Source: Desulfovibrio sp. (GTDB taxonomy: Bacteria > Desulfobacterota > Desulfovibrionia > Desulfovibrionales > Desulfovibrionaceae). From it: 38,077 nt of DNA. The stretch is from positions 1 through 38,077 of the forward strand of contig JAFQED010000063.1 of the NCBI GenBank assembly GCA_017415765.1, given 5' to 3'. The notes under the pieces are model-generated. The model was not told the DNA's origin. It saw only the letters and a program-made list of their open reading frames with translations, and searched no databases. Shown piece after piece: positions 4,950 through 6,209 of the stretch. Positions within the stretch are counted from its first letter, which is position 1. Every line of letters starts with the position of its first letter. A program made the position numbers and the translations under genes.

Positions 4950-5465
4950 TCAGCCCAGCAGATAATCACCCCGGTTAAACTTGAACTTTTCTGTGGCAGT
5001 CAGCACTTCCAGCTCATTGAGCAAGCTGTCGAAGCCGGGGTTCTGGCCACGTACGCCAGCGGTATCCTGACGCAGCCGGGCCACCTGGGTTTCAATGCCT
5101 TCCAGCATTGCCCACGCATCCTTCAGCGAACTGCCCTCGCCCGCAGAACCAATGGCTCTGGCATAGCCGTCCCACATGTCCAATGTGCCGGAAGCCTGCG
5201 CAAAAGCGGCCTGCAGCACTGCGGCATCAGGGTCAATAGCCTGCGCCGGGGCAGTACCCTGCAGGAGCATCTGGCTGATCAGCCCACTTTGGGCAGAACC
5301 CGGTGCCAACGGCTGCCCGCTGTCAACCGCCCCCCCCATGCCCAGCTCTTGCGCCAGCAGGGCCTCAAAGCCCTGCCCCTGCTGCCCGGCCTGCTTGCGA
5401 AGCGTTGCGGCTTGCTGTTCCTGCAAGCGCAGCAAGGCTTCCAGTTGGTCGGTATTGATGTTCAT
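4950..5465 (-). CDS. Hypothetical protein, alpha-helical, cytoplasmic
   Basis: I do not recognise this 171-residue protein beyond a general likeness to uncharacterised proteins of sulfate reducers. It starts MNINTDQLEALLRLQEQQ, has a helical first 35 residues rich in Gln and Leu, a Gly/Ala/Pro-rich middle, and a helical C-terminal third ending with the polar FNRGDYLLG. There is no signal peptide or membrane segment. The start is well supported by GGAGGC five bases before the ATG. It is convergent with mutL and monocistronic. A coiled-coil or chaperone-like role would fit the composition, but nothing specific can be claimed. Confidence 0.7.
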   Translation of the reverse strand: MNINTDQLEALLRLQEQQAATLRKQAGQQGQGFEALLAQELGMGGAVDSGQPLAPGSAQSGLISQMLLQGTAPAQAIDPDAAVLQAAFAQASGTLDMWDGYARAIGSAGEGSSLKDAWAMLEGIETQVARLRQDTAGVRGQNPGFDSLLNELEVLTATEKFKFNRGDYLLG

Positions 5466-5676
5466 ATTGCCTCCAGGGTTGGCGTTCGCCTACCTGCTCA
5501 CGATATGCAAAAATTCTGCCAGTTTAGAATTTTTTGTAACATATTGATTTAACAAGTATATTTTGGAAAGACAGAGGAATTTTTTGCCCGACAGCAGGGC
5601 TTTCCCGGCAGTCTCAGGCGCATTTGATCGGGGGCTGGTAAAAATTACCTCCATCCCATGCAGGGTATCACCGGCT

Positions 5677-5711
5677 GCCCCTGCCACACAAGGGATTTTG
5701 TTGTGCCAGCC
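5677..5711 (+). repeat. Direct repeat copy 1 flanking the small-peptide locus
   Basis: This stretch, beginning CCCCTGCCACACA and ending TGTGCCAGCC, recurs at 6066-6101 with roughly 80 percent identity by eye and one indel. The two copies bracket the putative small-peptide locus. Function is unknown. Confidence 0.55.
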
Positions 5712-5733
5712 CTGCCCTTGGTCACGCAGCACC

Positions 5734-5762
5734 TTGACACGGACAAGGCCTGTGCATACAAG
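5734..5762 (+). promoter_or_regulatory. Sigma70-type promoter directed at the 3' side of the small peptide gene
   Basis: TTGACA (5734-5739), a 17-base spacer and TACAAG (5757-5762) form a near-consensus promoter. The start would be near 5769. No plus-strand coding sequence follows, which suggests it drives a small RNA. Confidence 0.55.
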
Positions 5763-5768
5763 GAGGGC

Positions 5769-5875
5769 ATGGAGGCGGTAACCTCCATGCCCAGTGTGGG
5801 GCACGTCCCCCGCGAGTTAGTGTCTCGCAAGATTTGCGCCCCGACAGGAGAGTCGCCTCCTGCCGGGGCAACTTG
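5769..5875 (+). ncRNA. Candidate antisense small RNA (possible type I antitoxin)
   Basis: Starting from the promoter just upstream, the RNA would open with the stem around ATGGAGG / CCTCCAT (wider DNA inverted repeat 5765-5775 / 5782-5792) and continue to the long hairpin at 5839-5868. It would overlap the 3' region of the minus-strand peptide message tail to tail, as in TxpA/RatA-type systems. The end is uncertain because no T-tract follows the hairpin. This is a prediction only. Confidence 0.35.
5839..5868. terminator. Long hairpin after the small peptide gene
   Basis: CCCCGACAGGAG (5839-5850) pairs with CTCCTGCCGGGG (5857-5868) with one mismatch, which is a G-U wobble in the minus-strand RNA. 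It lies 12 bases beyond the stop of the small minus-strand frame. No U-tract follows on either strand, so it may act as a stabilising 3' structure or a shared terminator. Confidence 0.5.
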
Positions 5876-5879
5876 CGTG

Positions 5880-5963
5880 TTAGAGGTTCAGCAAACGAAC
5901 CACCACAGCCGCAAGGACGGCGGCCAACAATGCGGCCAGCACATCCCGGAGGAAACGTCTCAT
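5880..5963 (-). CDS. 27-residue hydrophobic peptide, candidate type I toxin
   Basis: A tiny frame (ATG 5963, TAA 5880) encodes a basic N-terminus MRRFLRD followed by an unbroken Leu/Ala/Val helix and a short RLLNL tail: one predicted membrane span. A perfect AAGGAGG Shine-Dalgarno stands 7-8 bases upstream of the ATG and is embedded in a stem AGGAG/CTCCT (5973-5977 with 5984-5988), so translation is probably self-masked. It has its own promoter (6006-6034) and a 3' hairpin, and an opposing promoter points at its 3' end. Size, hydropathy and layout match type I toxins (TisB, DinQ, Fst/TxpA-like), although I see no family-specific sequence match. A KdpF-like small membrane subunit is an alternative. 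Confidence 0.55.
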   Translation of the reverse strand: MRRFLRDVLAALLAAVLAAVVVRLLNL

Positions 5964-6005
5964 GGGGATACCCTCCTTTGCAGAGGAGCATTACCCCACA
6001 GCGAT

Positions 6006-6034
6006 TTTTTAGCAGAAGCCCTTATCCCTGACAA
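6006..6034 (-). promoter_or_regulatory. Promoter of the 27-residue peptide gene
   Basis: On the minus strand, TTGTCA (6029-6034), a 17-base spacer and TAAAAA (6006-6011) predict a start near 5999. That gives a leader of about 36 bases which folds over the ribosome-binding site. Confidence 0.5.
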
Positions 6035-6065
6035 TCAGACATCCACTACAGGAGGGCGAACGCTG

Positions 6066-6101
6066 TACCCCTGCCACACAGGGGAATTGGGCTGTGCCAG
6101 C
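6066..6101 (+). repeat. Direct repeat copy 2 flanking the small-peptide locus
   Basis: This is the second copy of the element at 5677-5711. Here it can form two small hairpins, CCCCTG/CAGGGG and GGCTG/CAGCC. It lies in the leader region of the stress-protein gene, so it may instead be a 5' regulatory element that was duplicated. Confidence 0.5.
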
Positions 6102-6209
6102 CAAGTCCCCTGCAAAAGTCCTTGTCTATTCTGGCAAAAGGCTCTAGTCTTGCAACAAGAAGGCGAGGATGAAAAACACCTGTATCCACAAGGCAGAAAG
6201 GAGCCGAGC

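What the first reader, a model, noticed from the sequence alone, without database searches (positions are those of the whole stretch)
5734..6034. Possible type I toxin-antitoxin locus with a 27-residue membrane peptide
Seen: a minus-strand 84-base frame (5963-5880) encoding a basic-start Leu/Ala/Val helix. It has its own promoter (TTGTCA-17-TAAAAA), a Shine-Dalgarno hidden in an AGGAG/CTCCT stem, and a 3' hairpin. A strong opposing promoter (TTGACA-17-TACAAG) has no gene after it and would make an RNA that overlaps the message's 3' end. Known: TxpA/RatA, BsrG/SR4 and TisB-like systems share this architecture. Inference: a new family of membrane toxin and antisense RNA. The peptide is too short for ordinary gene finders.
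Basis: partly seen in the sequence, partly recalled or inferred. Interest (0 to 1): 0.7.

Follow-up and report, generated by a model that had tools for sequence, protein, structure and literature searches.

The report
Likely membrane toxin with antisense switch
A tiny, unannotated gene for a 27-residue membrane peptide, facing an opposing RNA promoter, is one copy of a widespread element in Desulfovibrio-type bacteria and some of their phages, with a conserved RNA pairing that ties the two ends of its message together.

Summary
The 27-codon frame (5963-5880, minus), its start-site hairpin, its promoter and the opposing promoter are present. They recur together in relatives: 60 non-redundant copies were collected, falling into 38 flank clusters, some in tandem arrays and in IMG/VR contigs. 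The frame is under purifying selection (pN<pS in 147 of 154 pairs). The best opposing promoter ends 108-130 nt past the stop in 47 of 59 copies.

New here: the message's 5' arm, which closes the Shine-Dalgarno (SD), is also complementary, with covariation, to a 3'UTR segment inside the stretch that the antisense RNA would cover. Folding predicts that this pairing halves the cost of opening the SD, and that occupying the 3'UTR restores the tighter closed state.

Best reading: a type I toxin-antitoxin module whose antisense RNA blocks an SD-loosening 5'-3' interaction; like bsrG/SR4 in effect, opposite in predicted polarity to hok and aapA. Peptide matches to known type I toxin models are weak, and none was shown to pass a curated cut-off. 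Toxicity, transcripts and polarity are untested.

The parts
6029..6034 (-). -35 box (TTGTCA) of the peptide mRNA promoter
   Evidence: sequence; sense promoter score 6.69 in 58 copies vs 5.33 shuffled and 5.15 opposite strand
6006..6011 (-). -10 box (TAAAAA) of the peptide mRNA promoter; start predicted near 5999
   Evidence: sequence; the -10 ends 3-7 nt before the 5' arm in 53 of 58 copies
5985..5999 (-). 5' arm (GTGGGGTAATGCTCC): upstream anti-SD, and one side of the long-distance interaction
5971..5976 (-). Shine-Dalgarno sequence GGAGGG
   Evidence: sequence; SD and anti-SD motifs recognised by a loose script rule in 58 of 60 copies
5880..5963 (-). 27-codon gene for a hydrophobic peptide (MRRFLRDVLAALLAAVLAAVVVRLLNL), candidate toxin
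   Evidence: pN<pS in 147 of 154 pairs; GRAVY 1.55
5838..5869 (-). post-stop hairpin H1
   Evidence: a hairpin of at least 9 bp in the first 62 nt of the 3'UTR in 58 of 60 copies
5796..5811 (-). 3' segment of the long-distance interaction (GGGGGACGTGCCCCAC), resembling the SD-side strand
   Evidence: duplex with 5' arm -21.1 kcal/mol, P = 0.81 in the predicted window mRNA; covariation
5765..5792 (-). distal hairpin H3; T-rich run near this place in 44 of 60 copies, not in the window copy
5734..5739 (+). -35 box (TTGACA) of the opposing antisense promoter
   Evidence: best opposing site ends 108-130 nt past the stop in 41 of 54 and 47 of 59 non-redundant copies
5757..5762 (+). -10 box (TACAAG) of the opposing promoter; antisense RNA start predicted near 5769
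   Evidence: mean score 7.90 vs 6.28 shuffled and 6.47 same strand, 54 copies
5769..5879 (+). predicted antisense (antitoxin) RNA, complementary to the 3'UTR; 3' end not established
   Evidence: inference from promoter position; A/U-richness beyond H1 partly due to stop codons

Best explanation
This is a type I toxin-antitoxin module. A short mRNA encodes a small membrane peptide (24-32 residues in the copies kept); an opposing promoter makes an RNA complementary to the mRNA's 3'UTR. Supported by sequence comparison: the peptide is conserved and under purifying selection; its SD can be closed by the mRNA's own 5' arm; the same 5' arm can instead pair with a 3'UTR segment; both promoters are conserved in place. 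Inferred: the 5' hairpin closes the SD during transcription; when the 3'UTR is complete, its SD-like segment takes the 5' arm away, leaving the SD held by a weaker stem, usually with codons 4-6; the antisense RNA covers that 3' segment, so the 5' arm falls back on the SD and the message stays silent (and is probably cleaved as a duplex). If the antisense RNA disappears, for example after loss of a prophage, the peptide is made and damages the membrane.
For: Peptide homologues and repeated anatomy. Purifying selection. Opposing promoter. 5'arm-3'UTR duplex: cognate mean -24.4 vs non-cognate -19.2 kcal/mol, 58 copies, 0 of 5000 permutations; one copy per distinct arm (38), 662 of 703 swaps favour the cognate pair, 0 of 20000 permutations reach it; at least 11 bp in 55 of 58 copies, swap test 94% against 41%, 60%, 60% and 81% in four control windows. 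In A3 (55 rows) 46 doubly changed cells vs 20.5 in shuffles and 75.4% cells paired vs 69.8%, both 0/500. SD opening cost 4.6 kcal/mol with the interaction forced, 5.4 in the unforced full-length RNA, 9.5 without the 3' segment, 9.9 with the 3'UTR kept unpaired; forced lower than truncated in 58 of 58, unforced lower than truncated in 55 and than occupied in 54 of 58. Several copies per genome and tandem arrays, prophage carriage, varied contexts: usual for type I modules. Weak matches to type I toxin models.
Against: No transcript, toxicity or probing data. Folding is thermodynamic, 37 C. Even with the interaction the SD is mostly paired (mean unpaired 0.16, only 1 of 58 above 0.5; window 0.04), so the 'open' state is a weaker closed state. 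Forcing the interaction costs 3.6 kcal/mol on average over the unforced RNA (median 1.25), and it has P<=0.5 in 15 of 58 (one of these is the window copy, cut wrongly there and 0.81 when corrected). 'Pairs changed on both sides' (200/500 shuffles as high) and 'further pair types' (55/500) do not exceed shuffles, and a slide of +1 is nearly as good (70.7% paired), the alignment not being in register in every row. The control window codons 2-6 also prefers its cognate UTR, 81%. No clear terminator for the antisense RNA. Hydrophobic helices also give weak matches to unrelated models, such as PAP2 in 8 of 44 (best 0.0039) and Syndecan in 8 of 44, so the toxin-model matches are soft. The pairs in the pN/pS count are not independent.
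Confidence: 0.6

Rival explanations
1. Same type I module, opposite polarity: the 5'-3' interaction makes a translationally inert full-length mRNA, as in hok and aapA, with the SD kept shut by the start of the frame; a nuclease step (for example removal of the 5' arm) makes the active form.
For: In full-length RNA the SD pairs on average 0.45 with the first 30 nt of the frame, mostly around codons 4-6; window SD unpaired only 0.04. aapA3 uses an upstream aSD1, an in-frame aSD2 and an LDI, full-length inert and 3'-trimmed active (PMC6733600, passages seen).
Against: Here the 3' segment pairs with the anti-SD arm, not with the SD, and 3' truncation is predicted to close the SD more tightly (9.5 vs 4.6 kcal/mol, 58 of 58), the reverse of aapA.
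Confidence: 0.25
2. An antisense-controlled small membrane protein that is not a toxin: a stress or phage regulatory peptide, or a lysis helper in prophages.
For: Two IMG/VR copies lie beside endolysin genes (L117, L120); toxicity is untested; the toxin-model matches are weak.
Against: Tandem and dispersed copies, own promoter and opposing promoter, closed SD; other viral copies sit by integrase, terminase or tail genes.
Confidence: 0.12
3. Chance frame in a structured non-coding element.
For: The RNA is strongly structured and short hydrophobic frames arise easily.
Against: pN 0.175 vs pS 0.406, pN<pS in 147 of 154 pairs; SD hairpin directly before the start in nearly every copy.
Confidence: 0.02

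Closest known systems
bsrG/SR4 (Bacillus subtilis prophage SPbeta type I TA)
   Same: Opposing RNA overlaps the 3' end of a small membrane-toxin mRNA; antitoxin binding there extends SD sequestration from 4 to 8 bp (PMC6562991, figure legend and passages seen). Here SD opening cost is predicted to rise from 4.6 (interaction forced) or 5.4 (unforced) to 9.9 kcal/mol.
   Different: No peptide relation shown; here a covarying 5'arm-3'UTR duplex competes with the SD hairpin. Whether bsrG has one I did not test.
aapA/IsoA (Helicobacter pylori) and hok/Sok
   Same: Short toxin mRNA with an SD-closing upstream aSD1, a second aSD in the frame and a 5'-3' long-distance interaction said to be conserved between loci and species (PMC6733600, passages seen).
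   Different: There the 3' end traps the mRNA in an inert form and 3' trimming activates; here the 3' segment pairs with the anti-SD arm and is predicted to loosen the SD.
Clostridioides difficile type I toxins (NF047374; CD2517.1-RCd8 and kin)
   Same: 34 of 44 peptides match the model at E<=1, best 2.3e-5; convergent toxin and antitoxin genes, 34-59 residues, many in prophages, several copies (PMC6563280, passages seen).
   Different: Cut-off 60 bits not reached by the window peptide (12.3) nor in any of 79 genomes. Most peptides here lack the lysine-rich tail described there.
Ldr and Fst toxins (Pfam PF13940, PF13955; NF033608)
   Same: Weak matches: Ldr 10 of 44, best 4.7e-4; Fst Pfam 1 of 44, 0.015; Fst NCBIfam 5 of 44, 0.0018. 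Ldr loci are tandem in E. coli (recalled).
   Different: The window peptide matches neither; unrelated membrane models match about as weakly.

Membership tests
type I toxin-antitoxin system | small (<60 aa) hydrophobic membrane peptide | tested here: met
   24-32 aa (frames over 36 aa had been left out), GRAVY 0.88-2.11, median 1.5 in 60 copies; membrane location not assayed
type I toxin-antitoxin system | antisense RNA complementary to the toxin mRNA | tested here: inconclusive
   conserved opposing promoter (54 copies; 47 of 59); no transcript data
type I toxin-antitoxin system | toxin translation restrained by mRNA structure | tested here: inconclusive
   SD/anti-SD motifs in 58 of 60 and SD predicted mostly paired; the effect on translation is not tested
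type I toxin-antitoxin system | peptide toxic, antidote is the RNA | not testable with these tools
   needs expression assay
C. difficile type I toxin (NF047374) | score over the curated 60-bit cut-off | tested here: not met
   window peptide 12.3 bits; 0 of 79 genomes over the cut-off
Ldr/Fst toxins | match of the window peptide to the Pfam/NCBIfam models | tested here: not met
   none for the window peptide; weak matches in other members
hok/aapA-type LDI regulation | 5'-3' long-distance interaction conserved with covariation | tested here: met
   one search mixed (three of five measures beyond all shuffles, two not)
hok/aapA-type LDI regulation | 3' truncation opens the SD | tested here: not met
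   predicted opposite: SD opening costs more in the truncated RNA than with the interaction forced in 58 of 58; folding only, no experiment
any Rfam family | match to a covariance model | tested here: not met
   only two tRNAs in the window at gathering scores; 0 at E<=1 for 5600-6150

The most novel reading that the evidence does not exclude
A type I antitoxin RNA that works by occupation of a switch: the mRNA's 3'UTR carries an SD-strand mimic (an anti-anti-SD) that must capture the 5' arm to loosen the SD; the antisense RNA, whose matching stretch resembles the 5' arm, occupies that mimic and so shuts a start site about 150 nt away. The element would be a self-contained, mobile ON-switch, opposite in polarity to hok and aapA, spread through Desulfovibrionaceae and some of their phages.
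Probability: 0.45. Interest if true: 0.8.

Novelty: new variant of a known kind. Interest (0 to 1): 0.62.

Why it matters
A 2025 paper states that type I modules had been identified only in Proteobacteria, Firmicutes and Tenericutes, and attributes this to search bias (PMC12390103, abstract and passages seen). This adds a candidate family in Desulfovibrio-type bacteria (Deltaproteobacteria in older naming), including Desulfovibrio piger ATCC 29098, and in viral contigs. The covarying 5'-3' pairing offers a testable answer to how an antitoxin that binds only the 3' end can stop translation at the 5' end.

Tried and rejected
Chance frame: rejected. Opposing promoter belonging only to the downstream stress-protein gene: rejected, since a promoter in that place recurs in copies with other flanks. 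Known RNA family: none. Plasmid or named-phage homologues: none by tblastn of the window peptide; the other peptides were not tried there. L022 was dropped as a spurious hit inside a long frame. Codon bias for the in-frame anti-SD: CTC at Leu5 17 of 52 vs 50 of 251 elsewhere, suggestive only. A terminator for the antisense RNA: inconclusive (A in the 9 nt before H1 4.1 vs 1.7 background, at least 5 in 22 of 60, partly stop codons). The window copy's 5' end was cut wrongly, in A3 and's promoter distance; corrected. Rows dropped: 7 of 61 before the 54 (four with short flank, three with long frames); 83 collected and 60 kept as non-redundant, after leaving out frames over 36 aa, short flanks and high E-values; 2 of 60 without recognisable SD/anti-SD before the 58; L069_1500, L044_1500 and L043_885 left out of A3 (55 of 58). 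15 of the 60 came from a pattern that requires the SD stem, so they are no independent support for that stem. Context clusters rest on flanks of at most about 2 kb; some singletons may only reflect short flanks.

Full report
What is there. On the minus strand lie, in order: promoter TTGTCA-17-TAAAAA (6034-6006), a 5' arm (5999-5985), the SD (5976-5971), a 27-codon gene (5963-5880), a hairpin after the stop (5869-5838), a G-rich/C-rich segment (5811-5796) and a distal hairpin (5792-5765). On the plus strand TTGACA-17-TACAAG (5734-5762) points into the 3' end. The RNA 6007-5751 folds far better than shuffles (z -6.6). Neighbours are ordinary chromosomal genes: mutL upstream, a universal stress protein and an aminotransferase downstream.

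Conservation. tblastn of the peptide in 61 relatives matched 12 genomes at E<=10, all in one genus. A profile of 12 peptides reached 24 of 79 genomes of the genus at E<=0.001 (my count). A profile of 44 reached 49 of 297 genomes drawn from the order (10 of 55 genera) and 6 of 395 drawn from the phylum, three of these outside the order. A DNA pattern for the SD hairpin plus start hit 36 stretches in named genomes: 21 of 22 with Desulfovibrio, Desulfovibrionaceae, Mailhella or Deltaproteobacteria in the title held the peptide, and 0 of 14 from other groups (L080 is the one without). Equal contig lengths and peptides tie genus g1 to Desulfovibrio (for example G019:C14 and L074). Named hosts include Desulfovibrio piger ATCC 29098 (two copies) and Deltaproteobacteria bacterium Smac51. 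Of 13 IMG/VR contigs, 9 held it. No phage or plasmid record matched the window peptide. In the window's own genome (91% complete) only this copy was found at E<=0.1.

Mobility. 60 non-redundant copies fall into 38 clusters by shared flanking proteins, 26 of them singletons. Arrays occur: five copies 300-307 bp apart in G282, three in G160, four (one cut by the contig end) in G157. In viral contigs the element lies between an HTH/terminase-small-subunit-like gene and an endolysin (L117), after such an HTH gene (L110), beside an endolysin (L120), near a terminase large subunit (L112, L118), and between an integrase and tail-fibre genes (L113). Such positions are typical of phage 'moron' genes (recalled).

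It is a gene. Between equal-length pairs 70-97% identical, mean pS is 0.406 and pN 0.175, with pN<pS in 147 of 154 pairs, which are not independent. Copies with a lost start or an internal stop also exist (L015, L043, L135), as expected for selfish or dispensable modules.

Two promoters. In 54 of 61 copies that could be examined, the best opposing site scores 7.90 on average against 6.28 for shuffles and 6.47 for the other strand (shuffles keep base composition only); its -10 ends 108-130 nt past the stop in 41 of 54, median 119, and in 47 of 59 of the non-redundant set, in a searched stretch of 60-260 nt. The sense promoter scores 6.69 vs 5.33 shuffled, and its -10 ends 3-7 nt before the 5' arm in 53 of 58. 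The mRNA thus begins near the arm that closes the SD. A post-stop hairpin of at least 9 bp is predicted in 58 of 60 and a T-rich run near the distal hairpin in 44 of 60.

The hidden switch. The 5' arm is complementary not only to the SD strand but also to a segment starting 50-95 nt past the stop (56 of 58). Examples of cognate pairs: L102 GTGGGCACGTTCTCC with CGGGGAACGTGCCCC; L040 GTGGGCGTTGCCTCC with CGGAGGCAACGCTCCACC; L039 CATGAGTTGACCTCC with CGGAGGTCAACTCGATGG. L130, from a different family of the phylum and not used in the tests, shows 13 bp; L134, from another, only a poorer duplex (-16.0). Cognate pairs beat non-cognate ones (-24.4 vs -19.2 kcal/mol; 0 of 5000 permutations). With one copy per distinct arm (38), 662 of 703 swaps favour the cognate pair, 2 ties. 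Controls: SD window 41%, promoter window 60%, codons 14-18 60%, codons 2-6 81%, arm 94%. On the MAFFT alignment of 55, not in register in every row, cells paired are 75.4% vs 69.8%, doubly changed cells 46 vs 20.5 and covariation score 0.254 vs 0.188 (each 0/500), while two other measures do not exceed shuffles (200/500, 55/500) and a slide of +1 gives 70.7%. The SD hairpin itself: 82.6% vs 80.5% paired, 19/500; covariation score 5/500.

Polarity. Opening the SD costs on average 4.6 kcal/mol with the long-distance pairing forced, 5.4 in the unforced full-length RNA, 9.5 without the 3' segment and 9.9 with the 3'UTR kept unpaired as a stand-in for bound antisense RNA. Forced is below truncated in 58 of 58; unforced is below truncated in 55 and below occupied in 54 of 58. 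In full-length RNA the SD pairs mostly with the start of the frame, around codons 4-6, or with the arm. In the window copy the pairing has P = 0.81, twelve base pairs around a 3x3 internal loop, yet the SD is unpaired only 4% of the time; its opening costs are 4.9 (full), 5.4 (forced) and 9.7 (truncated). So 'open' means 'easier to open'. These are equilibrium predictions.

Known systems. bsrG/SR4: antitoxin binding at the 3' end extends SD sequestration (PMC6562991, passages), the kind of effect predicted here. aapA3: upstream aSD1, in-frame aSD2 and an LDI that silences, with 3' trimming to activate (PMC6733600, passages): similar parts, opposite predicted polarity. Peptide models at E<=1: C. 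difficile type I toxin 34 of 44, best 2.3e-5; phrog_738, unknown function, 35 of 44, best 9e-6; Ldr 10; Fst 1 and 5; but also PAP2 8 and Syndecan 8. Searching the C. difficile model against 79 genomes gave 10 places at E<=0.1, six of them copies already found here, none over cut-off. I therefore say it works like a type I module and may be distantly related to those toxins, but do not file it in any named family.

Print. Searches for Desulfovibrio or Deltaproteobacteria with type I toxin-antitoxin, antisense RNA or small proteins listed nothing that looked like this element by title or abstract start (listings only; a non-coding RNA survey of a Desulfovibrio relative, PMC11124144, was listed and not opened). 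'Anti-anti-SD' gave one paper, on a riboswitch and small RNAs (listing). T1TAdb and the 2017 distribution survey were not held, so an entry there cannot be excluded.

Noticed in passing
5678-5711 and 6068-6102: Two direct repeats (pieces of 20-21 nt, 80-90% alike) flank the element about 390 bp apart; their core pattern occurs only at these two places in the held genome. Could be a duplication from insertion or the trace of a lost tandem copy.
   Followed up: partly
5764-5792 and L002 1501-1529: The distal hairpin sequence is 93% identical over 29 nt to a terminator-like hairpin elsewhere in the same genome, which there has a T-run.
   Followed up: partly
codons 2-6 of the gene versus its 3'UTR, 58 copies: This window also prefers its cognate 3'UTR (81% of swaps), hinting at a second pairing, perhaps with the G-rich arm of the post-stop hairpin.
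   Followed up: no
L071 1200-2415 (G282:C182): Five tandem copies with the same GGCAAGTCC core in the 5' arm, so their antisense RNAs might cross-silence.
   Followed up: no
L118 8365-8595: A viral copy lies about 1.2 kb from a frame matching phrog_353 (moron, toxin), a second candidate toxin.
   Followed up: no
L136 (G014:C5): A more distant candidate found by the C. difficile toxin model, with a CTCC..GCCCC leader and a similar post-stop hairpin.
   Followed up: partly
4950-5465 minus: 171-residue frame beside the element without a Pfam match; its only NCBIfam match is far below cut-off.
   Followed up: no
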